From positions 1-64,000 of the forward strand of contig NW_026570280.1 of the NCBI RefSeq assembly GCF_019649055.1: a stretch of DNA of 64,000 nucleotides, read 5' to 3'. The position numbers and the translations under genes are program-made. Below are positions 18,976 through 39,111 of this stretch, piece after piece (within the stretch, counting starts at the first letter, position 1; the number at the start of each line of letters is the position of its first letter). The notes beneath the pieces were generated by a model. The model did no database searches and was not told the DNA's origin. It was given only the letters and a program-made list of their open reading frames with translations. The DNA comes from Paramacrobiotus metropolitanus (taxonomy: Eukaryota > Tardigrada > Eutardigrada > Parachela > Macrobiotidae).

Positions 18976-18979
18976 ACTA
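18976..18979. repeat. Target-site duplication ACTA, left copy
   Basis: ACTA directly precedes the left LTR and is repeated at 39,108-39,111 directly after the right LTR. A 4-bp duplication is typical of Ty3/gypsy integration. Confidence 0.85.
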
Positions 18980-19339: not shown

Positions 19340-20777
19340 TGCCTCTGGGGGGATGCCGAGCTCCTGTGAGGCTGGACACACTCCCGAATCCACGAGAAGA
19401 CGACGGTCGCCGGTGTCTGTGCGTGCTCAAAAACATCAAATTCTCTTAATCCATTTTATCACATCAATTCCGTAAAGGCACAATTCCATTTAATACAATG
19501 TGAATAAAGAGATCCAACTATAAAAATACTATCAAATCATTAGGAACAGATCAACAGTAACAGATCAACAAAAGTTTTAATCAAATGTAGACTAGGATCC
19601 TCCATTTCTGACTCGTAAAGGTCACAGGTCCTGTCCACCGTTTTCCGCACGTTGGCCCATTCCGCTCCGTTGAGCAATCCTGCGCATCCGTAATGCGACT
19701 TTCATCACAATCCGCTTTGAGAATCGGGTGCGTATCAAGTACGACTTAAGAATACTGCTTCAGTCTTTGGAATAAGGTGCGTATCAATTGTACGACTTCA
19801 AATGAGATCCATAAAGGTCATGGAGGGACGTCAATGAAGACAAGCGTGATTTGCTTCCTCCCTGGTAAAGGTCATCCTTTGTTAAGACAATCCGTTGAGA
19901 TGTGCGACTCAATTTGGGTTAATGGTCCCAAAGGTCATGCGACTTGAATTCCATTACGGTGACTCTGTTGGGCAATTAATGATCCCAAAGGTCATCCCAC
20001 TCGTCAAACCTTCCATTAAAGGTCATGGAGGGACTTAGCCAATTTTCTGCGGCTTCAAGCACTTCTTTGCTTGCCTCCCTGGTAAAATTTGCAGTTTGAC
20101 CTTTCCGTCACACATCCAACTTCAATATGCCTCGAGCGGCCAGAGTGCCGGCAAGTTTACCGTAGCATCTCTGATGGGGCCGGCTAATTACCGCATTAAG
20201 TTTACCCCATGAAATTTCCACCTTAAATCTTTGACTCTTGTTCGCCGCTTGTGGCTTACGTTAGTACGAGAAATCCGGCTTGATTACCGTAGTTTTTCTC
20301 GTTTTAATTATAACACTGAATCGCTTGAAAAGAGTGCCGGCATAGTTTACCGTAACAACTCTAATGAGGCCGGCTAATTGCCGCATTAAGTTAACCTCAT
20401 CAATATTCCACCTGTTGTCTTTCTCTTTTTCGCCGCTTGTGGCCCCGTTTCGTATTCAAGAGATCCGGCTTGATTACCGTAGTTTCTCTTGTCAATTTAT
20501 AACACTGAATCGCGTAAGGAGGAGAGCCGGCTAACTGCCGTAACTGCTCCCTTGGGGCCGGCTTTATAGACCGAATCAATTTCAACCCCAATAGATATTC
20601 CACATGATTTCTTTTAGGCAATTCTGTGCTATAAACGCTGCAAACAACAAATACACAAATACAGTTAATGTTAATATGTCATATGTCACGGCCTTTATAC
20701 AACACCATTTTCATCTTTGTGACGTACCGACAAATGCCGTAGACGTCCTTTCAATAGTGTGATCCTAAAGGTCAACA
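19340..20777 (-). other. 3' untranslated region of the LTR element
   Basis: Contains six plus-strand AAAGGTCA copies (starts 19617, 19813, 19867, 19930, 19987, 20018), five of them as AAAGGTCAT, plus TGACCTTT at 20098, then the hairpin array at 20,141-20,591. No ORF. CGCCGCTTGTGG occurs at about 20,243 and 20,431, shared with the 5' leader. Confidence 0.7.
20141..20591 (-). repeat. Array of eight hairpins with a shared loop and different stems
   Basis: Hairpins at 20141-20173, 20174-20210, 20266-20302, 20331-20362, 20364-20400, 20457-20491, 20521-20550 and 20552-20591. Each is a perfect 4-8 bp stem around a 20-28 base loop with CCGGC near one side and ACCG(T/C)A or GCCG near the other. Stem pairs include ATGGGG/CCCCAT, ATGAGG/CCTCAT, ACGAGAAA/TTTCTCGT, CAAGAGA/TCTCTTG and CAGAG/CTCTG. 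In sense strand the loop core reads TACGGTAA..AGCCGG. Part of the array is a tandem duplication of about 190 bp (20,141-20,330 and 20,331-20,518), so the paired hairpins are paralogous. Confidence 0.8.
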
Positions 20778-22547
20778 CTATTCCATTTCATTTGAATCGC
20801 CCTCGCCATCTCTCGGCGGGCGTTTCTTAGCGCTTTCTGGTTGGTTTCGATCGGAAGTTCGGTCAACTGGTTCCGTCGAGTCAACTTCCATGACCTTTGT
20901 CGGATCAACTTCGCGCTGGCCACGACCCTTACCTTGGCGACTTCGCTTAACCGCCTCAAGTCGATGGCGTGCGTCATTTTCTTCGAGTCGCAGTCTTCGA
21001 TTATCAGGGTCTTCCGCCAATCGACGCTGCACGTCGGCGAGATTATCCCGCAGCTGTTGGTTTCGTATGCCGCGTCGTCCCATCTGGTTAGGCGCACGGT
21101 CTGGGCGACGGTCACTTTTCTTCACCAAGAATTCATCAATGTAAGTTTCGATTCCGTCCACCGGTTCGACGTAGTCGCTTCCCAGAGAATCTTTGATCTT
21201 ATTAATCCTTTCTTCTACTTGGGATGCGTGGCGCTGTGTCAAGTTGCCCTTTTCCATTCGTGTCTTACACTTTTTCAGCGCCTTTCGAGCTGTGTGCGCT
21301 ATGCTGATATGTTCCATCGGTTGTCCCAATTTAGCGACATGAGCTCGGAAGAACGGTGGAATGTCGTCCTTCATAGTATTAGACACCAATTGATTCTGTG
21401 TCTTATAATGTGCCAGTCTCGCAGCAAAGACCTTTTGCCCCATCCTTTTTGCGGCATAGTCCTTAGGATCCACCTGTAGTCCTATCGATGCCCTTGCTGC
21501 AAGCAACTTGAAAGCTGGATTCACATGTCGTAGAACAAACTGAGCCACGTATTCTTGGCGTTCGGGATAGTCTCTGTAGTAGAACTGTGTCATCCCGATT
21601 GGGTCAGTTGTGTCCAGCGGTACATCCAATAAACTTAAATCCACCAAACTGTGTAGCCCATTCCGTCGGATAGGGAGATAACAGTCCCGTACTGAATCGC
21701 GGTGGATGAATAACCGACGGAAAAGTCCTTGTTCGACTCCTTGTTTAATCTCTCTCGCGTATCCCGAGTCAAGTAAGAAATGGCTCAGCTGTCTCAGAAT
21801 TGTGCCAATTTTGTTGGCTTCAACCGAATCCGGCTCGAGTCCAAAGTATCGACAAATTTCGACCGTTTGTTCATCAATATCAGTCGTCTTGTATTCCATG
21901 TCGATACTTTCTGGTTGTCGGTTATTAAATCTGGAGTTTAATCGCTGGTCACCTTGGCGACGATTATCCGGTTCGCCTTGACCTTCCAGTTCACGTCGGT
22001 CTGCTGATGCTGGCTGCGACGGTTCATTACTCATTGATGAAGCCGGTTGAAGGTCACTATCCAAGATCACATTTCGTCGGTGAGTCACATTCTCTTGAGA
22101 CGTGGTTTCGACAACTGAGCCAGTGCCTTCCATCGCGTCATCTTCTTGTACGGCGCTCACAATTGGATCCACAACGTGAACCACTGACTCCACCCGCTGA
22201 TACTTTGGGGGTGAATCTTCCCGTTCAGTGCTTGATGACCTTTTACTTGCGCCCGAGTCAAAGGTCGCATAAAATGCGGCTCTCTGTTGCCATCTCTTAT
22301 CCTGTGGGTCAGGCGTTCGATTTCGCGTATGTTCACGTCTTATCCCATGACCTTTCGGTGTTGACATCCTGACGTTGCGATTCCGGAATGCAACTCCCAT
22401 CGGCACCTGATGCCCTTGTTTTTCAGGCTCTGTACGGAACGTCTCCGCACGCCGTTTTTCTTCACGTCCTCTTGTGGTTGCCAAGATCTTTGCCGTATCG
22501 ATTTTCCTTTGAATACTCGTTTCTGTAACTTCGTCTCCATGGCGCAC
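20778..22547 (-). CDS. 589-residue unknown protein at the 3' end of the LTR element
   Basis: Open from 22547 to 20778. Residues 1-220 are polar linker. Residues about 225-430 are an ordered, mostly helical region with conserved-looking hydrophobics (HFLLDSGYAREIKQ, LHSLVDLSLLDVPLDTTDP, EYVAQFVLRHVNPAFKLLA). Residues 430-589 are Arg/Glu-rich. There is no signal peptide or membrane segment, so it is not an envelope protein. It sits where env or accessory genes sit in other LTR elements. It is word-poor, which suggests stronger protein constraint than in the linkers. Function unknown. Confidence 0.6.
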   Translation of the reverse strand: MRHGDEVTETSIQRKIDTAKILATTRGREEKRRAETFRTEPEKQGHQVPMGVAFRNRNVRMSTPKGHGIRREHTRNRTPDPQDKRWQQRAAFYATFDSGASKRSSSTEREDSPPKYQRVESVVHVVDPIVSAVQEDDAMEGTGSVVETTSQENVTHRRNVILDSDLQPASSMSNEPSQPASADRRELEGQGEPDNRRQGDQRLNSRFNNRQPESIDMEYKTTDIDEQTVEICRYFGLEPDSVEANKIGTILRQLSHFLLDSGYAREIKQGVEQGLFRRLFIHRDSVRDCYLPIRRNGLHSLVDLSLLDVPLDTTDPIGMTQFYYRDYPERQEYVAQFVLRHVNPAFKLLAARASIGLQVDPKDYAAKRMGQKVFAARLAHYKTQNQLVSNTMKDDIPPFFRAHVAKLGQPMEHISIAHTARKALKKCKTRMEKGNLTQRHASQVEERINKIKDSLGSDYVEPVDGIETYIDEFLVKKSDRRPDRAPNQMGRRGIRNQQLRDNLADVQRRLAEDPDNRRLRLEENDARHRLEAVKRSRQGKGRGQREVDPTKVMEVDSTEPVDRTSDRNQPESAKKRPPRDGEGDSNEME

Positions 22548-22620
22548 CCATCCTCTTCCGCCACGGTAATTCTGTCATGAGATGTCTGCGTGACCTTTCA
22601 CAGGGTAGTCACGTGTCCTC

Positions 22621-23460
22621 TCACGAGAGTGTTCGCGGACCTTTCCCTCTGTCGTTCAGAAGTTCGCTCATATTCTCGTGAATGTCCGCGTGACCTTTCT
22701 CTATGCGGGGCGAACGTGGTCGTATAGCCTTCGTCCCGTTTAAAATTCTGAATGCCTGCAGCACATCGCTTTCGGTTCGGCGAGATTTACGTAGGTCATC
22801 CATACGTCTTTCGATCTCCTTCTTTATAGGGTGCCGGCGCGAACCCGTCTTGAAGTCGTTTCTTCTCCCGCAACAGCATTTTGAATACCTCGTCTGACAT
22901 GGCAGCTGGATCTTTCGTTAACGTTTCAATTTGTATGATAAGTGACTGTCGTACAAGTTGCATTTCGTCTGTTAAGGCTGGCCATGCCTGTAGGTGCAAC
23001 TAAACTTGATGTGCTGGGCAGCCCCTCTCGTGCAGCCTGTTCACTTGCTCTCTTATTTTCCGCATTAATTTTCGCGCGGATTTCGTCTTCCATCTGCTGA
23101 GCTCGCATCTTCGCTTGGTCTTCTTCAAATTTCTTCCGATACACGTCTGTTCAGGACACTTCAACGGCTCCAAGGTGTCATCCCAGCCAGGTTCGTTGTT
23201 TCGGATCGCTTCTCGATAACGATCTTCGAATAGCATCTGCTCTTCTACTGGGATGCTGCCGTAATTTCTTGCGCTTATGAGATTTCGAAAACGTCCGTTC
23301 CCACGTTTGGCTTCCATGATCCCAACAAGCGTGACGGTATGTGGGTCTTCCAGCTTGTGAAGCAAGTGTAGCAAGGGAATTTCGTCAACCTTTTGTTGTT
23401 CCTTAAGCAGTCCGGACACTTTGGATTATAGCCCGTAAACTGATCGATGTCTGCCGCCAT
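22621..23460 (-). CDS. Unknown ORF cluster in overlapping frames
   Basis: Several short frames overlap: 23460-23275, 23419-23000, 23144-22926, 22999-22796 and 22803-22621. The plausible protein path hops between them: a Leu/Glu-rich segment (VEEQMLFEDRYREAIRNNEP), a helical Glu/Gln/Arg stretch, an AMSDEVFKMLLREKKRLQDG helix and a Ser/Arg end. Either several bases are missing in the sequence or these are exons. An acceptor-like site precedes the first one. No domain recognised. Confidence 0.35.
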
Positions 23461-23682
23461 TCCCGAACGTTTAGAAGGGCTTGACCTTTTGTGCCATCTT
23501 TCTCTTCAATCTGCAATTATAAAACAATCCATCATAGTAACCTTTTCGACGTTAATCCTTTCCATGTTAAGGCTTTCATCATTTTTACGCCTATTCCGTT
23601 ACTGAGCTGAGACTTTCCAGTCTCTGTTGCCTTTCTATCACTGTAACGTGGTGACCTTTCACGTTATCAGCACTTCTGACTG

Positions 23683-24210: not shown

Positions 24211-24336
24211 TAACTGTGCTTACCTTCTATAAAACGAAACAATAAAGGTTAGCTTTTTGCACAGTGGTGACCTTTCTTTTTGCCTTCCCAACTCCTATTT
24301 TTAATTAAGTGTGACCCCTTATTTATGTCTATGTGG

Positions 24337-25019
24337 TTATTTGTTCTCTCGTCCTTTAGTTATCCGATCAAGGAGTTCTTTCTCGGCTGCGTCCTCAGGT
24401 TCGCCTTTCTGGGTCAATAAGTCCGTAGAAGTTGGTTTCTTCTTCTTCTGTTTAACCTTCCGCTCGTTAATTGCTTTCGCTATATCACGGCCCAATTGTT
24501 CAGCTTTTGATTTGACCGCTTCTATCTCCTCTTCTCTCTTTTTTATGAGGTCATTCTCATAACCGGTAGCAGTGCGTGGTTCGAAAAAATTCGGGTCACG
24601 CTCTGACATCTCAGCGTCCGTTCGCTGTTTCAAAAGGTCATCTTTATCTGCGGTAGCAGTGCGTGGTTCGAAAAAGGATTGTTGCAAGTCCTTTTGGAGG
24701 AACGCTCTGGTACTTTGGAGCTCGTTTCGGTATCTTTTTCCAGTGACCTTTCTGCCAAATTACCAGCTTCTGCGTTCAACTTAATTGTGACTGCAGTTTC
24801 AAAGTCTTTGTCCTCTTTCCTTTTCCTTCCTCGCTTCTGTTTCGGTTTATCTCCGTTTAACCCATTCGTTTGACCTTCTCCCATTTCAGGTAGCGGAGGT
24901 GGTTCGAAAAATGGCTTCTGTTGTGTGACTGAGTCATTTTTCGACTCCGCCTCGATCTTTTTTCCGTTAGCTTTCTCCGTTTCTGGGTAGCAGAGGTGGT
25001 TCGAAAAAAGATTTTCCAA
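24337..25019 (-). CDS. C-terminal tail after integrase with FFEP repeats
   Basis: Two overlapping frames (24630-25019 and 24337-24687) continue past integrase. Each carries (F)FEP(R/P) peptides (PFFEPPPLPEMG, FFEPRTATA, FFEPRTATG) separated by Lys/Glu-rich sequence. The peptide is the translation of a roughly 24-base DNA repeat present six times in the element, four of them here. Frame changes make the true protein uncertain. No known domain. Confidence 0.45.
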
Positions 25020-26878
25020 ATCTTTTGAGTACGCTCTGTTGCCTTTTCCTCATCTGGTAATGGAGGGTGCCATGGTTTCAACCGGTCGATCGAAACCACC
25101 TTTAAGTCTGCTTCCTTCTTCGGGTTCTGCTCAATTACCTCGGCTTCGTTTGGTCGCGGGAAACTGAGAATCTTCCACACTTTGTCGTATTTGGACTTAA
25201 AGTCCGATTGGTTTTCTTTCTTCCCTTGTTTCGTGTCTTTCGGTAATCGTATCAATACGAAATCTCCCACTTTGAAGTTCGGTTCTGATTTCTTCCTATT
25301 ATAAATTTCCGCATTTTTCTCATAAGCATCTTTAATGTTACATCTCGCCACTTCTTCTGCAAAGGTCAAGTTCTTTTTCATGGTCTCTACCCATTCATCG
25401 GGAGTCCCATAATCATCGGGTATATTCGTTTTTGTAACCACATCTTCCGGCATTGTCATTTCTCTGCCGTGTAGCATATAGTATGCTGAATATCCCGTTG
25501 TGGCGTGTACGACTCTGTTCATCGCTGAAATAACATATGGGAGGTACTTGTTAAACTTTCTTTCATTTCCCGCTTTCAGGTATTGCGCCAAGCCATCCGC
25601 AATTGTCTGCATCTGTCTCTCCACTTGGCCTTGACCTTCTGGGTGATACGCCGTTCCAAATGTGTGTTTAATTTTAAACACATTGGTGACCTTTGCCAGT
25701 ACTTCTGCTGTAAAGTGTCGTCCGCGGTCCGTATGAAGGATGTGCGGTGCACCGTGTACCAGTATCACGTGCTTCACGAACACTTTAGCGAATTCTTTAG
25801 CCGTCGCCGTTTTCATTGGTACCGCAATCACATATTTCGTCAGTTGGTCGATGAATACCGCTATATACTTGTATCCACGTTTCTTCGTCGGTAACAACGG
25901 TCCTTTCAGATCAGCGTACACTCGGAAGAACGGATGTCCCACTTTAATCTCTTGCAGTTTTCCAGGTGGACATTTCCTCGGTGTTTTACGGAACTGGCAT
26001 CCTTGACAGGCGAGTATGTAATTCTTCACGTCTGTACTCATCCTGTCCCAGTAATATCGGAGTCTTATTGCTGACAATGTTTTCTCGAATCCCAAATGTC
26101 CCGCTGCTTTCTCGTCGTGCAATGCGTGGATTATTGCTCTTCGCATGGACAACGGAACAACATATGACCTTTCAAGTTTTCCATTTTTATCCTTTACTCG
26201 GTATAATATACCATTCCATAACTGGTAATGCACTTCAAATTTCGATCTTGTTTCCGCGTCTGGTAGGTGTTCCAATTCGTCTATGATCATTGCCAGATGG
26301 GGATCTTTCAATTGTTTGTTTCGCAATTGTAGATTGGAGTCATCCTCCTCTTCTTCGTCACCTTGCAGGTTAACGATGCGCACTGTTGCTGTACTGAGTT
26401 CGTTCCAATCTCTGATGACCTTGCATCGCGGTAGCGGTTTGTACCTCTTTTTCGTCTGTTTTGGGAATCTCAGCAACTTTATTGGACACTCGTTCAACGC
26501 TTGTGTAACTTTGTCCGTTTCCCAAAGGTCATCTCCTTTCTCCGCTGCTTTATCAAGTCCAGTGACCTTTCCATTATGAACTTCGGCCTCTGCTTCAAGT
26601 CCGGTGACCTTTAAGTCACTAACGGTGGGCAACCAACTTTTTACACGATTCACATTAGCTTCTATTTCAGCCGACTCATTCGCCGTAGCTGAAGTAACCT
26701 TTAATCGTTTCCCCCTCTGTTCCACCATCTGCAGGAACAGCTGTCCAACTTCAATTGCTGGTTCCTTCGTATCAAACTCCTTCTTGTAATCCTCGAAGTT
26801 TGGAATCTCATCGAATTCCTCTTCTTGACACGTCGGGCCTTCGATTGGCGTTTTGATAACGCGTCCGCGTTGTCGCAA
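24857..26878 (-). CDS. Integrase
   Basis: 673 residues. The zinc-binding domain is HALHDEKAAGHLGFEKTLS followed by CQGCQ (HHCC). The rve catalytic core shows D,D-35-E: VYADLKGPLL (Asp), ILHTDRGRHFTAEV (Asp) and YHPEGQGQVERQMQ (Glu). A C-terminal part FKVGDFVLIRLP resembles the GPY/F-type module, and there is no clear chromodomain. The first 30 residues overlap the end of RNase H. The last 60 residues run into a frame-confused zone with FEPP repeats. Confidence 0.92.
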   Translation of the reverse strand: MRQRGRVIKTPIEGPTCQEEEFDEIPNFEDYKKEFDTKEPAIEVGQLFLQMVEQRGKRLKVTSATANESAEIEANVNRVKSWLPTVSDLKVTGLEAEAEVHNGKVTGLDKAAEKGDDLWETDKVTQALNECPIKLLRFPKQTKKRYKPLPRCKVIRDWNELSTATVRIVNLQGDEEEEDDSNLQLRNKQLKDPHLAMIIDELEHLPDAETRSKFEVHYQLWNGILYRVKDKNGKLERSYVVPLSMRRAIIHALHDEKAAGHLGFEKTLSAIRLRYYWDRMSTDVKNYILACQGCQFRKTPRKCPPGKLQEIKVGHPFFRVYADLKGPLLPTKKRGYKYIAVFIDQLTKYVIAVPMKTATAKEFAKVFVKHVILVHGAPHILHTDRGRHFTAEVLAKVTNVFKIKHTFGTAYHPEGQGQVERQMQTIADGLAQYLKAGNERKFNKYLPYVISAMNRVVHATTGYSAYYMLHGREMTMPEDVVTKTNIPDDYGTPDEWVETMKKNLTFAEEVARCNIKDAYEKNAEIYNRKKSEPNFKVGDFVLIRLPKDTKQGKKENQSDFKSKYDKVWKILSFPRPNEAEVIEQNPKKEADLKVVSIDRLKPWHPPLPDEEKATERTQKIWKIFFRTTSATQKRRKLTEKRSRRSRKMTQSHNRSHFSNHLRYLKWEKVKRMG

Positions 26879-27537
26879 TATTTCCCCGGTTTATATTCAA
26901 TTTTAAACTGGTGACCTTGTAGTGCCATTGCCCATCTTGTCAAACGCGGGTTCATTCCAACTTTGTTCGTCTCTGACCTCAGCAGATTGGTCAGCGCCTG
27001 ATGATCCGTCCTTACGGTGAACTCTGCGTAATCAATGTACGGCTTGAATTTCCTGACAGCGAACACAACTGCCAGACATTCCCATTCCGTTACACCGTAA
27101 TTTTTCTCCGCTCCATGTAAGACACGACTGGCGTACGCGATCGGATGTCCATCTTGTGACAGTACGGCTCCGATTCCTTCTTTGCTCGCGTCGCATTCAA
27201 TGACGGTCGGTTTCGCGGGGTCAAACTTTGCCAGTACTGGACCTTCACACAACAACTTCTTCAAACTATTGAACTCTTCTTCATGTACTGCCATCCAGTC
27301 CTTTTTCACGTGCTTATCTTGTCTCAGCAGTTCATATAAGTGGGAAGTCTTCTGTGCGTATCCCATTATGAATTTGCGATAATAGTTCGCCAGTCCAAGG
27401 AATGACCTTAGTTGTCTTTCAGTCTGAGGCCGTTTGAATTCGGAGACCGCGGTGACCTTTTCCGGGTCCATACGAATATTCCGTCTTCGCTGAGTATATG
27501 ACCCAGAAATCCCATTTGTCTCATTCCAAATTCGCAC
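26701..27537 (-). CDS. RT connection domain and RNase H
   Basis: After about 20 out-of-frame residues it picks up the RT-linked pattern KVTAVSEFKRPQTERQLRSF followed by GLANYYRKFI. The RNase H domain follows: VIECDASKEGIGAVLSQ (first Asp), YGVTEWECLAVVFAV (Glu), FTVRTDHQAL (Asp), and HQFKIEYKPGKYCDNADALS (final Asp). It degrades the RNA template. The frame departs from the homologous path at an AAAA run after DALSK (about 26,862), after which the continuation is the integrase frame. Confidence 0.9.
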   Translation of the reverse strand: MRIWNETNGISGSYTQRRRNIRMDPEKVTAVSEFKRPQTERQLRSFLGLANYYRKFIMGYAQKTSHLYELLRQDKHVKKDWMAVHEEEFNSLKKLLCEGPVLAKFDPAKPTVIECDASKEGIGAVLSQDGHPIAYASRVLHGAEKNYGVTEWECLAVVFAVRKFKPYIDYAEFTVRTDHQALTNLLRSETNKVGMNPRLTRWAMALQGHQFKIEYKPGKYCDNADALSKRQSKARRVKKRNSMRFQTSRITRRSLIRRNQQLKLDSCSCRWWNRGGND

Positions 27538-30763: not shown

Positions 30764-30842
30764 GTTCTCAGTTGCTGGTGACCTTTCGTCTTCCTTTCCC
30801 AGTGCCTCTGGTACTGGGATAACTTTTCCGACTTTTCCATTT

Positions 30843-32459
30843 TCATTTCGTTTCCAGTGCCTCTGGTACTGGGATAATTTCTTCCTGCTGCACTTTTGTC
30901 ATTCCTGGTGCCTCTGGTACTGGGATGACCTTTTCTCTTCCCTTCTGTGTCAGCAAGGTCCGATTTAATGTCTTTTCGATCTCCTGCTGGATTACTTGCA
31001 ACTGCTCAAATGGTGACAATTCTTTTCGCGTCATCTTTTTCTTTTCGTTTCCCGGTGCCTCTGGTACTGGGATTAGCGCTTTATTAACAGTTTGAGCCTT
31101 TTCCTGTTTTGCAAGTTCGGTGACCTTTCCGACTTGCACTTTGGCAACTGGTTTTGGGTCATCTTCTTTTTCTTCTTCACCTTCATTATCCATCAGTACA
31201 AATTTCTTTTCCAAGAAATCAAATCCCAATAGGACTTGTACGTCATCACATTTCGGTCGGACGTAGAATGAATGTTCGCTTGTCTTCTTTCTTAAGGTCA
31301 CCGGTGCTACACAGTAGTGCGTCACCAGGAATCCCGACGTTCCGCTAATTCCGTTTATCTTTACCAGTCTGTCTGGTGGCAACGGAAGCATATGAAGTCC
31401 ATTCTTCTCGCAAAACGGTTTGCTGATCAGCGACGTCTCAGCGCCGGTGTCCAACATTGCGTTGACCTTTATGTCTCCCACTTTCACTTCGTGTGTATAT
31501 GCTTCAATTCTCTTGGGCAGTTTTCCATTTTGAATTTTCAACGTGTGAATCTTACATTTCACAGGGATGAGCGATACTGGTCCCGGATCCATATCGGAAA
31601 GCACTTGTCCTTTTGCTGGAGTGCTATGACCTTTCAGTATTTCGCTCAGCTTATCAATCCTGTGTGGAACGTTAGTCCGAACATCGTAATATTTTCGCGG
31701 CTTTTCTTTATTTGTTCGCTTCTCTGTAGCCATTTTATCACCGGTGACCTTTTCCACATTCTGCACTTGCTCATTTGCTTTTGTGCTATCCATGTGACCT
31801 TTAGTCACTTCATTTATCGTCTGATGGATCAATTCCTCTTTACGGTTTTCATTTCGTTTATCTCTCAGCTTCTCAATGACTTCATTTGTTATTTGGTCAG
31901 CTCGGTTCAATTCGTCTTCTTCACCATCTCTCATCTCCTCTGGTGACCTTTCATATGTGACCATATTATATCCCTTTTCGGTCATCCATTCAATCACCTT
32001 TGCAGACACTTCATTGTTCGTTTTCGTCGGATCGATTTGTGAAGACATTCCGTCTGTTCGGGCTGGTGACTTGTCATTGGCATCCTTTTGCAGTGCCTCC
32101 GATAAGTCCCGTGACCTTTCAACTGCGCCACCCTGTTGCATTTGCGCCATCTCGTTTGACCGTCCTTTTTGTGCATTTTGCGCTAAGTCCTGTGACCTTT
32201 CGTTGCGCTTCATGACAAATCCGCCGTTTGTCAGCTTTTGTAAGGGGACTTTTTCTCCGTAATTCGGCGGTTTATCCTGTGGCGGAGCATTACGTGAATA
32301 ATTCCAGTCAGCAAGTGTCTTCTTATATTCCTCTGGATTGAATGCTGGGACTGGGTTCGGTGACCCTTGCGCTGGTTTCCCGGTAACCAACTCTTCTAGT
32401 CGCTTTCTTTCACATTGCGTTCGCAACTGTTGCATGTCCCAGTAGTCCTCTTGTGACAT
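30843..32459 (-). CDS. Aspartic protease region of the polyprotein
   Basis: 538 residues. Residues about 320-430 hold the retropepsin: VGDIKVNAMLDTGAETSLIS with the catalytic DTG, then a KINGISG flap-like segment and VQVLLGFDFLEKKF, matching the (I/V)LG.DFL motif. The protease would cut the polyprotein in the particle. The N-terminal 300 residues are charged spacer with many (E/Q)RS and KGH/KVT peptides from the embedded word. The C-terminal part repeats IPVPEA(P/L) four times, and a fifth copy lies in the next ORF. Confidence 0.85.
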   Translation of the reverse strand: MSQEDYWDMQQLRTQCERKRLEELVTGKPAQGSPNPVPAFNPEEYKKTLADWNYSRNAPPQDKPPNYGEKVPLQKLTNGGFVMKRNERSQDLAQNAQKGRSNEMAQMQQGGAVERSRDLSEALQKDANDKSPARTDGMSSQIDPTKTNNEVSAKVIEWMTEKGYNMVTYERSPEEMRDGEEDELNRADQITNEVIEKLRDKRNENRKEELIHQTINEVTKGHMDSTKANEQVQNVEKVTGDKMATEKRTNKEKPRKYYDVRTNVPHRIDKLSEILKGHSTPAKGQVLSDMDPGPVSLIPVKCKIHTLKIQNGKLPKRIEAYTHEVKVGDIKVNAMLDTGAETSLISKPFCEKNGLHMLPLPPDRLVKINGISGTSGFLVTHYCVAPVTLRKKTSEHSFYVRPKCDDVQVLLGFDFLEKKFVLMDNEGEEEKEDDPKPVAKVQVGKVTELAKQEKAQTVNKALIPVPEAPGNEKKKMTRKELSPFEQLQVIQQEIEKTLNRTLLTQKGREKVIPVPEAPGMTKVQQEEIIPVPEALETK

Positions 32460-33492
32460 TTTCGCTTTTCTGCTTTGCCTTCGGCGTTACGGGTATCCAC
32501 ATCCCGTGATTCCCATTCGGTCTGTAGGCCACTTTTGCCAGATTTCCTTCCTGTTGCAGCGTTATTGCATCTACAAGTGAGTCATCGGAGTTCTGTTGTG
32601 CCAATTCGCCATTCTTTTGCTGCGCTGTTCGCAGTGTCAAGTCTGTTTCTTGACCTTTTAACACGACGCTGTCGCCGTGACCTTTCGCATTCGCACTCGC
32701 TCCTTGACCTTTAACTTGGACTTTTCCAACAGAAGGTGACCTTTCATCTTTACTAATGGCGGTGATGTTTTGCTTAATCCATTCTTGCCTTATTCGCTTC
32801 TCTTCTTCGGATTCTGAACAATTCCAAAACTTTGGCTTTGGCTCCCCGTAACAATCGCAACTTGGCTCATTCGCTTTATCATTTCCTGCCAAGTATTTCC
32901 GGAATTTCGCGTGTTGCTCATTTCCCTCTTGCGCAGTATCGTTCTGCGGTGGTGAATTTTGGTCTTTCGATTTGCCATTTATCTGTTTCCGGAACCATTC
33001 GTGGTGCATTTCCACTTCTTCTGCGGTATCAGTTTGTGGTTTCTTCTGGTTTAACAGCGCTTGTTGAATCTTGGCATTACGTAATGCACGACGTTCAGCT
33101 AGCACTTTCTCGCTGCAATACGGTGACCTTTCATTTTGCTGCACTTTTTGCAGTGTCGCGCTACCGTCACGACAATTTCCACTCGCAGTACCATTCTGCG
33201 GTGACCTTTGGTCCCGTTGCGCGCTTCCACTCGCAGTACCATTCTGCGGTGACCTTTTATCCACTTGAACATTTCCACTCGCAGTACCATTCTGCGGTGA
33301 CCTTTCACCTTGTGACGGTATCCCCATAACCGTTCCATTTCCTTTTTGCGATGACGGCATCCATATAGCCGTTTCTCTTTGCTGTGGCGGCATCCATCTA
33401 GCCGTTTCTTGTGGTTGCGGCATCCATATAGCCGGTCCACTTTGCTTTTTCGCTGACGGCATCCATATAGCCGTCGCAGTGGTCACATTCAC
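32410..33492 (-). CDS. Low-complexity repeat protein between Gag and protease
   Basis: 360 residues of short peptide repeats: AIWMP(S/Q) four times, then (E/K/Q)RSPQNGTASG three times, then Glu/Gln/Lys-rich sequence. No known domain. The RSPQNGTASG units lie around copies of AAAGGTCAC (33,200, 33,248, 33,296), so the DNA word has been amplified with the peptide. It overlaps the next ORF by about 50 bases in another frame. Function unknown; probably a polyprotein spacer. Confidence 0.55.
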   Translation of the reverse strand: MNVTTATAIWMPSAKKQSGPAIWMPQPQETARWMPPQQRETAIWMPSSQKGNGTVMGIPSQGERSPQNGTASGNVQVDKRSPQNGTASGSAQRDQRSPQNGTASGNCRDGSATLQKVQQNERSPYCSEKVLAERRALRNAKIQQALLNQKKPQTDTAEEVEMHHEWFRKQINGKSKDQNSPPQNDTAQEGNEQHAKFRKYLAGNDKANEPSCDCYGEPKPKFWNCSESEEEKRIRQEWIKQNITAISKDERSPSVGKVQVKGQGASANAKGHGDSVVLKGQETDLTLRTAQQKNGELAQQNSDDSLVDAITLQQEGNLAKVAYRPNGNHGMWIPVTPKAKQKSENVTRGLLGHATVANAM

Positions 33493-33572
33493 TGCAGTAC
33501 CATTCTGCAGTGGTGACCTTTCCCTTTTATCCGGTGGTTTAGGGTCGGGTCGATCAGTAGGCTCACCGGTGC

Positions 33573-34109
33573 CTACTGATCTTGCCCGTTTCCCTGAACC
33601 GGCGCCCCACCTTGTTGTACGCCTTGCACATTTGCTTGTTGTTGTCCGATATTATTTGCCGGGTTAGGATTCTGTCCGCCGCCGTTATTATATTGGCCGC
33701 CACCCTGTTGGTAGTTTCCTTGGCCGCCGCCATTGTTCTGGCCTCCTCTGAAGTTTCCGCGGCCGAAGCCTCTGTTTCTTCCTCTGAAGCCGCCGCGGCC
33801 GAAGCCTCCACGGCCGAAGCCGCCATTCTGGCCACCGCCATTTCCATTTCCGTAGTTCCCGTTTCCATTCCCTTGTTGGTTTTGGAAGTTTGCCTTATGT
33901 TGGTACCATTGGGTGATGAGGTCATATCCGTTTGCGACCGCTGGGCGCCAGCCACCTATAGCTCGGAGGCGTTGCCACTCGTTAAAGGCAAACAGATTCG
34001 GGTTCTGTTCTGGTGGTGTATTGGCGAACTTGCACCCCTGTGTCTGATGGTTGCCGTACATACAGTACTGGCACATCTGCACGTTGTTCGCCACCCATCC
34101 ATCAATCAT
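33573..34109 (-). CDS. Gag, nucleocapsid region with CCHC zinc knuckle
   Basis: Contains CQYCMYGNHQTQGCK, a C-x2-C-x4-H-x4-C zinc knuckle, the nucleic-acid-binding signature of Gag, at residues about 14-27. A Gly/Asn/Gln/Arg-rich tail with FGRGGFRGRNRGFGRGNF-type RGG repeats follows. Both features fit RNA binding and packaging. Opening ATG at 34107-34109 is inside the frame of the true upstream Gag continuation, so this is likely part of one Gag polyprotein. Confidence 0.7.
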   Translation of the reverse strand: MIDGWVANNVQMCQYCMYGNHQTQGCKFANTPPEQNPNLFAFNEWQRLRAIGGWRPAVANGYDLITQWYQHKANFQNQQGNGNGNYGNGNGGGQNGGFGRGGFGRGGFRGRNRGFGRGNFRGGQNNGGGQGNYQQGGGQYNNGGGQNPNPANNIGQQQANVQGVQQGGAPVQGNGQDQ

Positions 34110-34684
34110 CTGGAACTTGAACTCTGTTCGTGATCCTTGATTCTGCTGTTGATTCCCTCTGAAGTTTCCTTGACCTTGACCTCGTCCCTGGTTCTGGAAG
34201 TTCCCTGACCTCCATTCCAGTTTCCATTTCCGTATCCGTTTCCGCCGAAGTTTCCGTTACCCCCTCCTTGTTGTGGTAACCCCATATTCGGAGGCATATT
34301 CTGAGGTGGCGGCTGGGCTACATTCTGGGGAGCCACATTCTGGGCTACTGGCCTCACCTGGGCCGCTGCCTGTATCGCTGCCACCATTGCGTATGTTAAC
34401 GGTTGCCCGGTCTGACTGTCGATAAAGGTCACTTCCTTTGTGACCTCTTGGGCCGGCGCCTCTCTACGGTACTCGACTGGCTGTTGGACTGGTGCAGCCG
34501 CCATCCTCTGTTGCGGTACATTTTCAACTTGGCCTTGGCGGATGGTCACGTATTCCTGATTACGTTGACCTTTAGGCGCCTTATATTTATCTTCTCCCGC
34601 TGACCAGTGACGGAAGAAATCTTTGATTTCGGTTGGAGTCCTGCACTGTTGCGTGCGTAGTGCCTTATAAAGGTCACCATCCAC
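34106..34684 (-). CDS. Gag, middle region (Pro/Gln/Asn-rich)
   Basis: A 192-residue frame continuing Gag: a helical start (ALRTQQCRTPTEIKDFFRHW) followed by Ala/Pro/Gln and then Gly/Asn-rich sequence (NGNFGGNGYGNGNWNGGQ). From about 34,200 the compositionally matching continuation is in the next frame, so the C-terminal 35 residues of this frame are probably spurious. The break lies at a short run of G and A. Confidence 0.6.
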   Translation of the reverse strand: MDGDLYKALRTQQCRTPTEIKDFFRHWSAGEDKYKAPKGQRNQEYVTIRQGQVENVPQQRMAAAPVQQPVEYRREAPAQEVTKEVTFIDSQTGQPLTYAMVAAIQAAAQVRPVAQNVAPQNVAQPPPQNMPPNMGLPQQGGGNGNFGGNGYGNGNWNGGQGTSRTRDEVKVKETSEGINSRIKDHEQSSSSR

Positions 34685-34742
34685 TCTACATCCTTCGATC
34701 AGGAATCCGACTGCCTGCTTTTCAGTTATGATCCTCTTCGCC

Positions 34743-35558
34743 TTAGAGTTTCATAATCGCTTGATAAAACTGATCAAGCGATTCCTTTCCGAGGTCAAAT
34801 TTCCTTGCCATGGCTTCTCGTAAGCCAAGAACTTCCTCGTCACGGTCTCCATATTCATCTTTAAACTTGGCCATCCATTCTGTAATGGTGTATTCCGTTT
34901 CTTCTTGGAGTGCGATTTCTCTCTCTCCTTCGAACCAGGTCTTCGCCGGTCCTTTGACTGCGCTGGCTATTTCAATCAAAATCTGATCGTCAGTGAGATG
35001 ATATGTCCGTTGGGTGTCTTTGACCAATTGTGTCCACCCATTCACTGCGTCGCGACTTCCATCAAAGGTCACTAGGTTTGTCTTGCGCCCCATCGATTGG
35101 AGTGCGTTCACTAATCTCTGTGTCGCATCATTGTCTTCTGCCGTACTGGAGTCACTATCGTCATCGTCCTTATTTCGCTTCGCTTTTCCGTAGCGGGACT
35201 TCCTTGGGCGTTCTTGCCGGCTAGACGGTCTATCCTGTTTCCTTTCATCAATGAAGATTTTCGTTTCAATATGTGGATGAAATTGGGTGGGATCACCACG
35301 ATTCGAATGGGAATAAGTTTCCGATGGTGGCTCCTTGTCATCCTTGACCTTTTCCCCGTCCTTTTCGTTTTTGACACTTCCTCTGCCAGTACCGGTTCGT
35401 AGCGGCATATCAAAGTGGAAGCTTTGCCCGTGCCCGTTTCGTGCGCCTTGCTGTAACTGGGCGGGGCGACTCCACTGTTGAAGTCCTGACTCCATATTGC
35501 AGAAGCTGTTCATCTTTGTGCTTATTAGACATAACAAGCGCCTTATTCTCATCCTCAA
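34743..35558 (-). CDS. Gag, capsid region
   Basis: After a charged, Asp/Glu/Arg-rich N-terminal half, residues about 150-271 match the retrotransposon Gag pattern: LVTFDGSRDAVNGWTQLV, then the WFEGEREIALQEETEYTITEW region, KFKDEYGDRDEEVLGLREAM and ESLDQFYQAI. This region forms the capsid shell. The frame stops at TAA (34743-34745), and the continuation of Gag is in another frame from about 34740. The site could be a frameshift (CTC TAA G) or an error. The word AAAGGTCAC is read here as VTF on the opposite strand. Confidence 0.75.
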   Translation of the reverse strand: MRMRIRRLLCLISTKMNSFCNMESGLQQWSRPAQLQQGARNGHGQSFHFDMPLRTGTGRGSVKNEKDGEKVKDDKEPPSETYSHSNRGDPTQFHPHIETKIFIDERKQDRPSSRQERPRKSRYGKAKRNKDDDDSDSSTAEDNDATQRLVNALQSMGRKTNLVTFDGSRDAVNGWTQLVKDTQRTYHLTDDQILIEIASAVKGPAKTWFEGEREIALQEETEYTITEWMAKFKDEYGDRDEEVLGLREAMARKFDLGKESLDQFYQAIMKL

Positions 35559-37407
35559 GGCGACGGACTTTGAACTGGACTTCCTCTTTCTCCGTTTTCA
35601 AGTTCTGATTCTCCTCCTTGACCTTTAACATATGTTGGTGGAGTTGGAAAGTCTTCTCCTGAATGACCTTTTCAGTGTCATTCTCCACCTTTTTAATGTG
35701 TTCCGCCAACTGGGTCACATCCCTTTCCAGCTTCGTGTATTCCTCGACTGCTGCTTTCAGTTGGTTTTTCGTCTGGGTGACCTCATCTTCTCTTGTCATC
35801 ACCGTTTGGGTCATATCAATCAGCTCCGTGTTGAGCTTGATAATCTCCTGCGTCTTCTGGTGGACTGATTGTTGCCACTCCTTATCTTTCAATTCAAGTA
35901 CCGTGACCTTTTCATCCAGGAGGTGTGCCTCGTGTTCCCACCTCATGCCTTGCTCGGCAATTGTCTTAGCAGTCTTTTTCAACTCGGTATTCTCTTCGGT
36001 GACCTTTTGAACATCTTCTTTCAACGACTTGTTCTCTTCCATCACCTGCTTAATTTCGTTCTTCAACCGCACACCTTCAGTGGCTGTAAGCTCCCTCAGG
36101 TCCTTAGCCACTTTGACAGCGTCGTCGGCTCTCCTCTGATGATCCTGTGATTCTTTTTGAAGGGTTCCGATGTTCTCGTCCCGTAACTTCAATTCGTTTC
36201 TCAGCTTAAACACCTCATTGGTGTTTGTCAACAATCGTTGAGTAGCGTCGACGAGTTTGGCCGCGTATTCATCTCGCTTGGCTTCCGCTTCGGTGACCTT
36301 AAGTTTCAGTGAGTCACATTCATCCTTCAATTCGGCTAAGTGCCGTGACCTTTCCGCTGATTCTTCTGACATGCTCTCATTAAGGTCACTAACTGCAAGA
36401 TGACCTTCCATTTCTCTGTCATCTGCCATTTTCAAATATTCATCAGCCAATTCCTTCTGTCTTTCATATTTCACTTTCCAACCGTCTGCGGCACTTTGAA
36501 GGTCACCCTGTTGCTGCTCCAGATCGAACAGGCGTGCTTCAAGTGTCGTCAGTCTTTCCCGATATTCCTGTTTTCGCTTATCCGCTTGACGTTCATTGAC
36601 TTCAAGTTCATTTTCCAATTCACTGACACGTCTCCTCAAAGTTGACGTGGGACTGTTCGGTGACGGTGGTCGTACACTGATGACCTTTCCAGTTTTTGTC
36701 CGTTCAATGAGGTGCTCCGGTATGTCCTTGAATGGTATCATACCTTCAGCCCGGTCAGCTTCCTTCATGGCAGTTTGAAAAGACATATTCATCGTTGCTT
36801 CATCATCCGTGAAGTAGGACTCGTTCGATTCGTCTGAGACCATTGGAGTTGCCCAAAGGTCATCACCTGCGGTCTTATCGTCCAATGAAAGGTCATCCAG
36901 TCCCAGTTCAGCCAAATTCTCTTCGGTGACCTTTATGTTTCCATCTTCCACTTGGGCCAGGTTTACATTTTTATCCTGCTCGTTTGTTCCGCTGGTGGTA
37001 GCATCCAGCTGTGATGCTGCCACTGCTTCCGCTCTTCTTTCTGTGGATTTTTCCTCCCCAGTGACCTTTGTCTGGTTCATCGGGTCACTTCCCGCTGTGG
37101 GCGCGGGAGTGTGTTTCTGGTCGTCACTAGAGCTTTCCTGATTGGCGACCGCCTCGAGCGCCTTCTGATAAGTACTATCAGAGCCTCGTGAATCCTTCTT
37201 TTCAAATGCCTTGGGCGCTCGAGTATTCCGCTCGTGTCCAACTGGACGCGAGTACGGGTACAAATCTTTTTTGTACGGATTTGGTGCACCTTGCTGTGAG
37301 CTTCGGGAGCTTTTGCTTCCCTGACTGCTGTTAGATGTCGGTTCCTCTTGGTCTTTATCCATGTTGATCGGATAACTTGGACGCTCCTGCCAATTGTTCT
37401 CACACAC
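35410..37407 (-). CDS. 665-residue coiled-coil protein of the LTR element
   Basis: Open from 37407 to 35410 (apparent start codon ATG). Residues 1-250 are polar and low-complexity (Ser/Gln/Glu/Asp). Residues about 265-630 are almost continuous heptad coiled coil, with long Glu/Lys/Leu runs such as RRRVSELENELEVNERQ. No catalytic motif, membrane segment or known domain is seen. It precedes Gag and overlaps the next ORF by 149 bases in a different frame, so Gag could be made by frameshift, reinitiation or splicing. About ten AAAGGTCA words are embedded, read as KVT, KGH or RS. Coiled-coil ORFs are not standard in gypsy elements. A structural or RNA-binding ORF1-like role is a guess. Confidence 0.7.
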   Translation of the reverse strand: MCENNWQERPSYPINMDKDQEEPTSNSSQGSKSSRSSQQGAPNPYKKDLYPYSRPVGHERNTRAPKAFEKKDSRGSDSTYQKALEAVANQESSSDDQKHTPAPTAGSDPMNQTKVTGEEKSTERRAEAVAASQLDATTSGTNEQDKNVNLAQVEDGNIKVTEENLAELGLDDLSLDDKTAGDDLWATPMVSDESNESYFTDDEATMNMSFQTAMKEADRAEGMIPFKDIPEHLIERTKTGKVISVRPPSPNSPTSTLRRRVSELENELEVNERQADKRKQEYRERLTTLEARLFDLEQQQGDLQSAADGWKVKYERQKELADEYLKMADDREMEGHLAVSDLNESMSEESAERSRHLAELKDECDSLKLKVTEAEAKRDEYAAKLVDATQRLLTNTNEVFKLRNELKLRDENIGTLQKESQDHQRRADDAVKVAKDLRELTATEGVRLKNEIKQVMEENKSLKEDVQKVTEENTELKKTAKTIAEQGMRWEHEAHLLDEKVTVLELKDKEWQQSVHQKTQEIIKLNTELIDMTQTVMTREDEVTQTKNQLKAAVEEYTKLERDVTQLAEHIKKVENDTEKVIQEKTFQLHQHMLKVKEENQNLKTEKEEVQFKVRRLEDENKALVMSNKHKDEQLLQYGVRTSTVESPRPVTARRTKRARAKLPL

Positions 37408-38746
37408 ACGTTATTGTATGGTTTATTCAATAATCCTAAAGGTCACTCTGTACCTCCGAAATTTTCTAAGTCCTTATTAAAGGTCACTTTTTGACTGAAA
37501 AATTTCGACTAAGTCCCGTGTAAAGGTCACTTTTTCGATAAAAAGTTCGAGCGATTTGCCCTAAAAGGTCACTTTCGGACAAAACTTCGAAACAGCTTTT
37601 ACAGTTTGGAACACGTTAGCGAATGAAGTCCAACAGCTGCTGATATCGCTGTGCCACTATTCGGTTCAATTTCACTTCGGTAAAGGTCACCGTTTGTCAA
37701 TTTCGAATCATAAAGGTCACTTAAATAGGTCAATCCGATCAATTCCAACTTTTTGGTAAAGGTCACTTTTCTAAGTCAAAGGTCAACTTCTGGTCCCAAA
37801 GGTCACTTTCTGACTCAACTCAACTCAAAAGGTCACTTTCCAGCTCAATTTCGAGTTAAAGGTCACTTTTCATCTCAATTATCTCATCTCAGATCAAATT
37901 TCCCATTACTGCTAAAGTTCAACGGAAAATCCCGATTCGGGTTGTTTACGTCGTTCTGATTGGTCAGCTAGTTCAAATTATTCAGTTCAAATTTCGACCA
38001 ATCACAGCTCAGATAACTGACCAATTACGTCGTTCCTCTTAAAATCTATATCTGCCTGACGTCACGGTCAACGGCCAGACATGCGCGCCGTGTGCAAAAC
38101 TCCGCCTACATCTACGCTCAGCTCAGTACGGACCAATGAAAATTGAGAATTTTACCATCTAACCAATCCCGTAATTAATAACGGGTTTTCTACCTGTTTC
38201 CTCGTCCTTTCCACGAGAATCGATCCAGATGATCCAGATTCTTCTTCCACTGTCCGTTCCCGCGCTGCCGCCGGTTTTACCGTAACGGTTGTGCCGCACG
38301 CTTTTTGGTCGGTTACTGTGCCGGCTGACTGCCGTAGCAACAGTAGTTACGCTCTACTCCAGTTTGGAGGAGTCTGATCTGGTCTTTTCCCGTGCGCCCC
38401 TTTTAGCGCTTCGCCGCTTGTGGCCCACGGCTTAGGATTCGCTGAATCCTTGCCGAGTATCAGCGACACCAGTGTAGGTCTTCGCTGAAGACTCTACACC
38501 GAGGAACGCTGACGACTGAACTCTTGGACTCTTGCTCAGCTGAGGAAACAGCACAGGTCTTCGCTGAAGACACTGTACCGAAAACCAGAGCTGGAAATCC
38601 ACGTCAAATGAGGCAGTTCACCGCTTGTGGTGTGCGCTTTGCTGTCGGATAGACCTGTGCCTTACTGGTCGGGTTTCCACATCAAATAACAGGCCAACTT
38701 TGCCTGACACAAATCAAATCAGAGAACCGCTGTCGGCTCTGCTACC
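37408..38746 (-). other. Long 5' leader of the LTR element
   Basis: 1.3 kb between primer-binding site and first ORF. The LTR-proximal 900 bases lack AAAGGTCA. They contain a hairpin of the same type as the 3' array (TACTGT 38,314-38,319 with ACAGTA 38,340-38,345, loop GCCGGCTGACTGCCGTAGCA) and two shared strings CGCCGCTTGTGG/CACCGCTTGTGG. They also contain two GGTCTTCGCTGAAGAC palindromes (about 38,475 and 38,552). The ORF-proximal part carries the dense word cluster listed separately. Packaging or translation signals would be expected here. Which string does what is unknown. Confidence 0.6.
37438..37865 (+). repeat. Eleven same-strand copies of AAAGGTCA in the leader
   Basis: AAAGGTCA starts at 37438, 37479, 37522, 37564, 37682, 37712, 37758, 37778, 37798, 37828 and 37858, all on the plus (antisense) strand, and ten continue as AAAGGTCAC. 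Intervals are 41, 43, 42, 118, 30, 46, 20, 20, 30 and 30, mostly near multiples of a DNA helical turn. The word is the extended nuclear-receptor half-site type (A-rich flank plus AGGTCA), a resemblance only. Confidence 0.85.
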
Positions 38747-38747
38747 A
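38735..38747 (-). other. Primer-binding site for initiator tRNA-Met
   Basis: In sense orientation TGGTAGCAGAGCC begins at the first base after the 5' LTR. The first 11 bases are complementary to the 3' end of animal initiator methionine tRNA (CTCTGCTACCA), the primer also used by yeast Ty1 and Ty3. The abutting position fixes the inner LTR boundary. Confidence 0.85.
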
Positions 38748-39107: not shown

Positions 39108-39111
39108 ACTA
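39108..39111. repeat. Target-site duplication ACTA, right copy
   Basis: Matches 18,976-18,979 and lies inside the Kelch reading frame. Confidence 0.85.

What the first reader, a model, noticed from the sequence alone, without database searches (positions are those of the whole stretch)
19617..37865. An 8-base word, AAAGGTCA, is scattered about 85 times through one retrotransposon, across coding and non-coding sequence
By hand count AAAGGTCA/TGACCTTT occurs about 85 times in 18.3 kb; random expectation for both strands is about 0.6. It is in the leader, the 3' untranslated region and most ORFs. In ORFs it is read in all three frames (AAA GGT CAC = KGH; xAA AGG TCA C = (E/Q)RS(P); AAG GTC AC = KVT) and also in reverse (VTF, DDL). 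No peptide-level repeat explains that. It is nearly absent from the LTRs and sparse in the 589-residue ORF. The word is the type bound by monomeric nuclear receptors (A/T-rich flank plus AGGTCA). Alternatives are a binding site for an element-encoded protein, an RNA packaging or export signal, or a self-recognition or anti-silencing tag.
Basis: partly seen in the sequence, partly recalled or inferred. Interest (0 to 1): 0.92.

Follow-up and report, generated by a model that had tools for sequence, protein, structure and literature searches.

The report
Conserved 8-base word across tardigrade retrotransposon
A jumping gene of a tardigrade carries the same eight-letter DNA word 85 times, inside and outside its genes, and related copies have kept most of these words while the letters around them changed, which points to an unknown DNA-recognition system spread along the element.

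Summary
AAAGGTCA occurs exactly 85 times in 19617-37865 (30 +, 55 -), inside a 20-kb Ty3/gypsy-type LTR retrotransposon of the tardigrade Paramacrobiotus metropolitanus. Thirty other RT-bearing loci of this genome hold 0.17/kb against 4.7/kb here. In four diverged relatives (18-26% DNA divergence) 18/22, 14/15, 14/16 and 23/28 aligned words are kept, other 8-mers 10-23%. Divergence is 0-6% inside the word and mostly 13-47% around it: a footprint of eight bases. Either orientation is kept alike (53/62, 16/19). Codon and frame tests exclude a peptide cause. A nested clade lost the words (0 in 6 kb of L072, 2 in 3 kb of L003) and its sites drift at about the flank rate. So the word is kept by selection, yet dispensable in one lineage. 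Best reading: a double-stranded DNA binding site whose protein coats the element, probably to keep it expressed. The word equals the NR4A monomer site NBRE and the host has an NR4A-like gene, but the binder is unproven and may be element-encoded. No precedent found, within limited searches.

The parts
18976..18979 (.). target-site duplication ACTA, left copy
18980..19339 (-). 3' LTR, 360 bp, identical to the 5' LTR; contains no word
19617..20774 (-). 3' non-coding stretch with 8 words (7 antisense to the element, 1 sense)
20778..22574 (-). 598-codon stop-to-stop ORF, C-terminal part of the lineage-specific 3' gene (relatives up to 913 aa); 3 words
23000..23425 (-). 141-codon ORF, by eye similar to the N-terminal part of the same 3' gene, apart from it in this copy because of frame breaks; no words
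24857..26890 (-). integrase ORF (H2C2 zinc domain, rve core); 6 words
26701..27546 (-). RNase H ORF; 1 word (in the overlap with the RT ORF)
27408..28598 (-). reverse transcriptase ORF; 3 words (overlap words counted in both ORFs)
28409..30898 (-). 829-codon region between protease and RT with a conserved Cys/His-rich stretch (by eye); 13 words
30843..32486 (-). protease ORF (aspartyl protease); 9 words
32410..33651 (-). repeat-rich ORF between gag and protease; 9 words
33573..37410 (-). gag region in four ORFs: coiled-coil-like N-terminus, capsid-like part, glycine-rich part with a CCHC knuckle (knuckle read by eye; capsid only by a weak Ty3_capsid match, E 0.012, in relative L069); 15 words
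37438..37865 (-). leader array: 11 words in 428 bp, all antisense to the element, often TAAAGGTCACTTT on the + strand
38736..38747 (-). likely primer-binding site TGGTAGCAGAGC; fit to the 3' end of initiator Met tRNA is recalled, not searched
38748..39107 (-). 5' LTR, 360 bp; contains no word
39108..39111 (.). target-site duplication ACTA, right copy

Best explanation
AAAGGTCA is a recognition site for a sequence-specific protein that binds double-stranded DNA. It is kept by purifying selection at some 85-90 places along the internal part of this retrotransposon, whatever the reading frame or strand. The protein would coat the integrated copy at about one site per 200 bp on average, plus a dense array in the leader, and keep it open for transcription (an anti-silencing or insulator-like role). 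Shown: DNA-level conservation beyond peptide and background, the 8-bp size, indifference to strand and frame, a shortage of close-set words, and loss in one clade. Inferred: that a protein reads it as DNA (about 0.7), and that the effect is on chromatin or expression (about 0.4). Binder: a host monomeric nuclear receptor of NR4A type, because the word is its exact site (about 0.3), level with an element-encoded protein (about 0.3). The receptor figure was lowered from 0.35 on re-checking which base of the word changes most.
For: Words are kept at the same places in diverged relatives: 18 of 22 (L069/70), 14 of 15 (L073), 14 of 16 (L074), 23 of 28 (L071), against 10-23% for other 8-mers. With the encoded peptide unchanged, the word's DNA is kept in 10/11, 9/9, 8/9, 16/16 cases against 19-37% for other peptide-conserved 8-mers. 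Divergence is 0-6% at the eight positions; of the 20 flanking positions 19 lie at 13-47% and one at 7%. Both orientations are kept alike, 53/62 and 16/19. Gaps of 8-19 bp between neighbouring words number 2 in five stretches where about 19 are expected after local shuffling, as if each bound protein needs about 20 bp. The word equals NBRE, which Nur77 binds as a monomer (PMC3386274, passages; also PMC12539977, one passage). The host has a gene on C45 with three ordered pieces matching an NR4A DNA-binding domain at 83, 76 and 67%. Among one-mismatch variants in the element those with another first base are commonest (14 of 38 listed), and they were found unchanged in 10 of 18 far comparisons, as an AAGGTCA core would give.
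Against: No binding, chromatin or expression data. The clade of the wordless L072 has many copies by RT, several with long open frames (of these only L072 and L003 were read for words), so the word is not needed by every lineage in this host. Where words do change in relatives, base 2 changes most (5 far and 11 near substitutions, against 1 and 4 at base 1), which a simple AAGGTCA core does not predict. Words avoid a following G (0/85, 3/91, 3/37, 1/35, 2/32) and the leader form is longer (TAAAGGTCACTTT), which plain NBRE does not predict. The one-sided orientation in the leader (11/11 here, 7/7 in L069) is unexplained by an orientation-blind site. The shortage of close words is absent in two short stretches, L004 (0 vs 0.4 expected) and L006 (2 vs 1.6), is weak in L074 and L071 for 8-19 bp (P 0.06 and 0.09), and the five stretches share ancestry.
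Confidence: 0.5

Rival explanations
1. An element-encoded protein binds the word and so recognises copies of its own family (VANC-like self-recognition). The wordless clade lost or changed that protein and its sites then decayed.
For: Of the DNA read here the word is dense only in this family, runs along the internal region and is absent from the LTRs. One clade lost it and its sites drift at about the flank rate (0.33 vs 0.29 in L072; 0.25 vs 0.26 in L003). A precedent exists: VANC21 and its motif YAGTATTAY in VANDAL21 (PMC5735166, passages).
Against: No DNA-binding domain was recognised in the accessory ORFs searched (Pfam; PDB sequences); fold prediction never ran. The 3' genes of two word-bearing lineages show no similarity by tblastn or single-sequence hhalign, so the binder would more likely sit in gag-pol. 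In the 6 kb of L072 that were read, the gag-pol pieces that fall in that stretch still have matches; its gag, integrase and 3' gene were not seen.
Confidence: 0.3
2. An RNA-level signal: the sense and antisense words are read in the genomic RNA, either by the nucleocapsid protein or by pairing of UGACCUUU in the leader and 3' end with AAAGGUCA in the body, for packaging, dimerisation or circularisation.
For: Non-coding words are 18 of 19 antisense and coding words 54 of 66 sense, so the two ends are complementary to the body. The L069 leader repeats this, 7 of 7. Dispersed packaging signals are known in RNA viruses (PMC6281560, listing and start of abstract only).
Against: Antisense words that could be aligned are kept as well as sense ones (16/19 vs 53/62). 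The sense bias in coding DNA is partly explained because an antisense word brings a TGA stop in one frame. Variants of base 1 are T, G and C alike (7, 6, 5 in L069/70), not G.U wobbles only.
Confidence: 0.15
3. No function at the DNA level: the word follows from repeated peptides, tandem duplication, biased mutation or chance.
For: Some words do sit in short repeats (33146-33305), and leader flanks look alike.
Against: All frames and both strands are used, and codon shuffles do not reproduce the counts in the word-rich ORFs. Synonymous conservation and an 8-bp footprint are not peptide effects. The words decay in the wordless clade, so the word is not a mutational cold spot.
Confidence: 0.02

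Closest known systems
VANDAL transposons and their VANC anti-silencing proteins (Arabidopsis), PMC5735166 (passages) and PMC10398659 (abstract, outline)
   Same: A short motif at high density is specific to one transposon family and rare elsewhere; a family-level recognition system is implied.
   Different: VANC21 motifs lie mainly in non-coding regions, in same-orientation tandem arrays that vary much between related elements. Here most words are in the coding span, in all frames and both strands, and the same word is kept across relatives 18-26% diverged. No binder is known here, and the element is an LTR retrotransposon, not a DNA transposon.
[quoted passage not shown]
   Same: A Ty3/gypsy-type element with about a dozen sites clustered in the leader (11 words in 428 bp here; 12 sites in 340 bp in gypsy).
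   Different: The sequence differs (consensus YRYTGCATAYYY in gypsy), and here 74 further words run through the rest of the element.
NGFI-B response element (NBRE) bound by NR4A nuclear receptors, PMC3386274 and PMC12539977 (passages)
   Same: Identical 8-bp sequence; a host gene with an NR4A-like DNA-binding domain exists.
   Different: Described in the passages read as a site in host gene promoters, not as 85 sites along a transposon; flanking preferences here go beyond NBRE; binding untested.
Bacterial DNA uptake sequences (recalled, no call)
   Same: A short word scattered through coding DNA in all frames and kept by a recognition system.
   Different: Bacterial chromosomes and transformation; here a mobile element family in an animal.

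Membership tests
Ty3/gypsy-type LTR retrotransposon | two LTRs, short target-site duplication, primer-binding site | tested here: met
   360-bp LTRs with 0 differences, ACTA on both sides, TGGTAGCAGAGC next to the 5' LTR (tRNA identity recalled)
Ty3/gypsy-type LTR retrotransposon | pol order protease, RT, RNase H, integrase | tested here: met
   Pfam matches in that order on the - strand
Ty3/gypsy-type LTR retrotransposon | RT groups with named Ty3/gypsy clades in a tree | not tested
   only relatives from this genome were placed in trees
VANC/VANDAL sequence-specific anti-silencing | element-encoded protein binding the motif | tested here: inconclusive
   no recognisable binder; structure prediction never ran
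VANC/VANDAL sequence-specific anti-silencing | motif mainly in non-coding tandem repeats | tested here: not met
   66 of 85 words lie in the coding span, 61 wholly in listed ORFs
VANC/VANDAL sequence-specific anti-silencing | motif varies much between related elements | tested here: not met
   same word, same places, in four relatives 18-26% diverged; one clade lost it
VANC/VANDAL sequence-specific anti-silencing | loss of silent chromatin marks on bound copies | not testable with these tools
   no chromatin data held
gypsy/Su(Hw) insulator | array of about 12 sites in the leader | tested here: met
   11 words at 37438-37865; 7 in the L069 leader
gypsy/Su(Hw) insulator | Su(Hw) consensus sequence | tested here: not met
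   word is AAAGGTCA, consensus given in PMC2374998 is YRYTGCATAYYY
NBRE / NR4A receptor site | sequence AAAGGTCA | tested here: met
   identical
NBRE / NR4A receptor site | NR4A receptor present in the host | tested here: inconclusive
NBRE / NR4A receptor site | receptor bound to the sites | not testable with these tools
   needs binding assays or ChIP

The most novel reading that the evidence does not exclude
A mobile element has written one protein-recognition word through its whole internal text, bending its codons and even its amino acids (ERSP, KGH and KVT motifs, by eye) to fit, so that a protein coats every copy end to end and marks it as self and open. One daughter lineage has since dropped the system and gone on multiplying. 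That would be a distributed, coding-embedded self-tag, a kind I do not know to be described for eukaryotic transposons.
Probability: 0.35. Interest if true: 0.95.

Novelty: new variant of a known kind. Interest (0 to 1): 0.86.

Why it matters
It is a clean case in which selection on a DNA word overrides freedom of codon choice along a transposon, in several lineages at once, with a natural wordless sister lineage in the same genome as a control. That pairing makes a long-standing question, how transposons keep themselves expressed in a silencing host, directly testable by comparing word-bearing and wordless copies. It also offers a simple route to the binder: one 8-bp probe.

Tried and rejected
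Rejected: peptide repeats as the cause. Composition (letter permutations average 1.4 in the internal region). A word equally dense elsewhere: thirty other RT-bearing loci hold 18 in 107.9 kb, the window outside the element 7 in 43.8 kb. These backgrounds are themselves about 4 times their permutation means (4.1 and 1.7), though the reversed word also occurs 5 times outside the element, so a mild genome-wide excess may exist and is unexplained. A changed word in the wordless clade: no 8-mer reaches comparable density in L072 (best 5 in 6 kb) or L003 (best 5 in 3 kb), and aligned former sites differ from each other. Helical phasing: no 10.5-bp signal. Regular long-range spacing: gap CVs fall within the random range. 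Led nowhere: Rfam at gathering thresholds, tRNA scan with the bacterial setting, homologues of the L070 727-codon ORF, PDB sequence searches with three queries. Papers: AAAGGTCA with retrotransposon (2 papers) or with NBRE and transposable element (1 paper, the same as one; its one passage is about NR4A1 and NBRE in general; the other, on rice, was not opened); this species with retrotransposon (none). Structure prediction did not complete, so no fold search was made.

Results against the reading: L003 shares 1 of 11 words with the window, or 1 of 8 ungapped sites by the stricter count. L004 shares 5 of 9. L004 and L006 show no shortage of close words. In the near group some words are lost (e.g. 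L026 keeps 11 of 15, L034 11 of 14). Word changes fall most on base 2. Read for words were 29 family loci besides the window's own (L010-L038), six further loci at word or relative places (L003, L004, L069/70, L071, L073, L074) and one wordless stretch (L072); of 105 RT matches scored (1622 first-look candidates) most were not read. Of the loci, L001, L002 and L005-L008 gave no alignment over 800 bases to the element and were dropped from the comparison. The wordless clade's leader, gag, integrase and 3' gene were not seen.
Full report
What it is. The window lies in a 169.8-Mb genome of 533 contigs. Proteins of this element match NCBI proteins of Paramacrobiotus metropolitanus, the best at 97% over 35% of the RT query and 96% over 90% of the 598-codon query. 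The contig lengths given for three of those proteins (4484719, 680294, 30675) equal those of contigs C1, C76 and C387 here, so the host is that tardigrade. The element is on the - strand: two 360-bp LTRs without a difference, at 18980-19339 and 38748-39107, flanked by ACTA, with protease, RT, RNase H and integrase in Ty3/gypsy order. The copy looks young by its LTRs, yet its frames are broken into overlapping ORFs. Relatives carry long continuous frames.

The count. AAAGGTCA occurs 85 times in 19617-37865, 30 on + and 55 on -: 4.66 per kb. The rest of the window has 7. Thirty other RT-bearing loci of the genome have 18 in 107.9 kb, 0.17 per kb. Genome-wide there are 42,562 on both strands against 15,522 for the word read backwards; how much of that excess lies in this family was not counted. 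No second word is comparably enriched after masking it.

Not a peptide effect. In ORFs the word is read in all frames, and synonymous-codon shuffles give on average 0.9-1.3 words in the four richest ORFs, where 9-13 are seen. In codons whose amino acids are unchanged between window and relative, the word's DNA is kept in 10 of 11, 9 of 9, 8 of 9 and 16 of 16 cases (L069/70, L073, L074, L071), against 19, 23, 19 and 37% for other 8-mers with unchanged amino acids; in the wordless L072 it is 0 of 3 against 21%.

Conservation. Four word-bearing relatives were compared over the parts that align by DNA. Words kept: 18 of 22, 14 of 15, 14 of 16, 23 of 28, while other 8-mers are kept at 12, 12, 10 and 23%, and 8-mers of the same letters at 37/222, 14/132, 16/136 and 53/228. 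One search, which treats overlaps and gaps differently, gave 17 of 20 for the first and 24 of 27 for the last. Over 78 ungapped site comparisons, divergence per position is 0.01, 0.06, 0.00, 0.05, 0.04, 0.03, 0.01, 0.00 inside the word. It is 0.13 and 0.19 at the two bases next to it and up to 0.47 further out; the one low flank position, ten bases upstream, is 0.07. This is a footprint of eight bases. Words in either orientation are kept alike, 53 of 62 and 16 of 19. Among 29 close copies (L010-L038) divergence in the word is 0.00-0.03 over 431 comparisons and 0.01-0.18 in the flanks, a weaker contrast, as expected of close copies.

A lineage without the word. L072 (RT 91% identical to the window in protein) has 0 words in 6 kb, and L003 from the same clade has 2 in 3 kb. 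Two relatives less alike in RT, L073 and L074 (85 and 82%), have 37 and 35 in 6 kb. In a protein tree of 18 rows rooted on three outgroup sequences from the same genome (L065, L067, L068; 42-45% identical), L003 and L072 form a clade (100/98) inside a group of 12 (99/100) that excludes the word-bearing L073, L074 and L069/70; a DNA tree of the 15 ingroup rows, rooted at its midpoint, agrees (100/99). Words on both sides of the deepest split, at the same places, make loss in that clade the simplest history. Its former word sites differ from the window by 0.33 per base against 0.29 in the flanks (L072, 20 sites, none kept) and 0.25 against 0.26 (L003, 8 sites, 1 kept). So they drift like anything else, and the word is not a mutational cold spot. 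By RT the clade is abundant and includes long open frames, but only these two copies were read for words.

Shape of the signal. Leader words are 11 of 11 antisense to the element here and 7 of 7 in L069; 3' non-coding words 7 of 8 antisense; coding words 54 of 66 sense. Part of the coding bias follows from TGACCTTT carrying a stop in one frame. The leader form is often TAAAGGTCACTTT; a G after the word is rare (0 of 85 in the window, 3 of 91 in L069/70). Words are rarely 8-19 bp apart: 0, 1, 0, 1, 0 in the window, L069/70, L073, L074, L071, where local shuffling expects 5.1, 6.3, 2.9, 2.9, 2.2 (P 0.004, 0.002, 0.05, 0.06, 0.09). Gaps of 25-49 bp are in excess (short repeats contribute to that excess). 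Two short stretches, L004 and L006, do not show the shortage. Overall spacing is within the random range and without helical phase.

How it may work. A site kept regardless of strand and frame, eight bases long, with few close neighbours, is what a protein reading duplex DNA would leave; that step is inference. The word is the NBRE, which Nur77 binds as a monomer (PMC3386274, passages; PMC12539977, one passage). The genome has 63 nuclear-receptor zinc-finger matches, exon by exon, and one gene on C45 matches a recalled NR4A domain in three ordered pieces at 83, 76 and 67%. Against a simple host-receptor story stand the preference beyond the eight bases, the changes falling most on base 2, and the abundant wordless clade. 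The other main option is an element-encoded binder. The 3' genes show no similarity between the window's lineage (a 913-residue protein in relatives) and L069/70 (949- and 727-codon ORFs), so such a binder would more likely be in gag-pol. No DNA-binding domain beyond the usual retroelement zinc domains was recognised. Structure prediction was requested but never ran. I take a role in keeping copies open or expressed as most likely because density along the body, and a dense leader array, resemble VANC targets (PMC5735166, passages; PMC10398659, abstract and outline) and the gypsy insulator (PMC2374998, passages).

Novelty. Searches for the word with retrotransposon or transposable element, for VANDAL/VANC, for gypsy insulators, for dispersed packaging signals and for short motifs in retrotransposons listed no paper whose title or abstract start, as shown, describes such a word through the coding sequence of a eukaryotic transposon; the library is open-access only and most listed papers were not opened. 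The parts are of known kinds (binding-site arrays in transposons), but the extent, the coding load and the constancy are not known to me, hence 'new variant of a known kind'.

Noticed in passing
window 18980-39107: LTRs are identical over 360 bp yet gag-pol and the 3' gene are broken into many overlapping frames; relatives show continuous pol frames. Either very recent damage or assembly indels.
   Followed up: partly
window 20778-23425; L070 5081-9885: The gene after pol is lineage-specific: a 913-residue protein with a CxxC...CxxC start in relatives of the window's copy, but a 949-codon ORF with a threefold repeated domain (by eye) and a 727-codon ORF in L070.
   Followed up: partly
window 28409-30898: A Cys/His-rich stretch and a block KKKVTFAPDPDGV(E/D)YPERGGDTWCMYET (or close to it) lie between protease and RT in the lineages read, with no Pfam or PDB sequence match.
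   Followed up: partly
window 51428-52381: ORF with a Phage Tail Collar domain match (E 1e-7) in an animal genome.
   Followed up: no
window 16118-16793 and 39227-39880: Inverted repeats of 71-126 bp, 82-85% complementary, near both ends of the element; perhaps small DNA transposons.
   Followed up: no
window outside the element; L008: A short string AAACCTAAGAAA and its complement recur dispersed in both flanks; its 8-mers occur 7-8 times in 3 kb of L008.
   Followed up: no
L067 (C321): A distant Ty3-type element (RT about 45%) has 3 words in 3.5 kb, above its background; a possible earlier trace of the system.
   Followed up: no
contig C1, first 830 kb: Outside the dense clusters the word seems about twice as frequent as its reversed control (estimated by eye from the 100 listed places).
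   Followed up: partly
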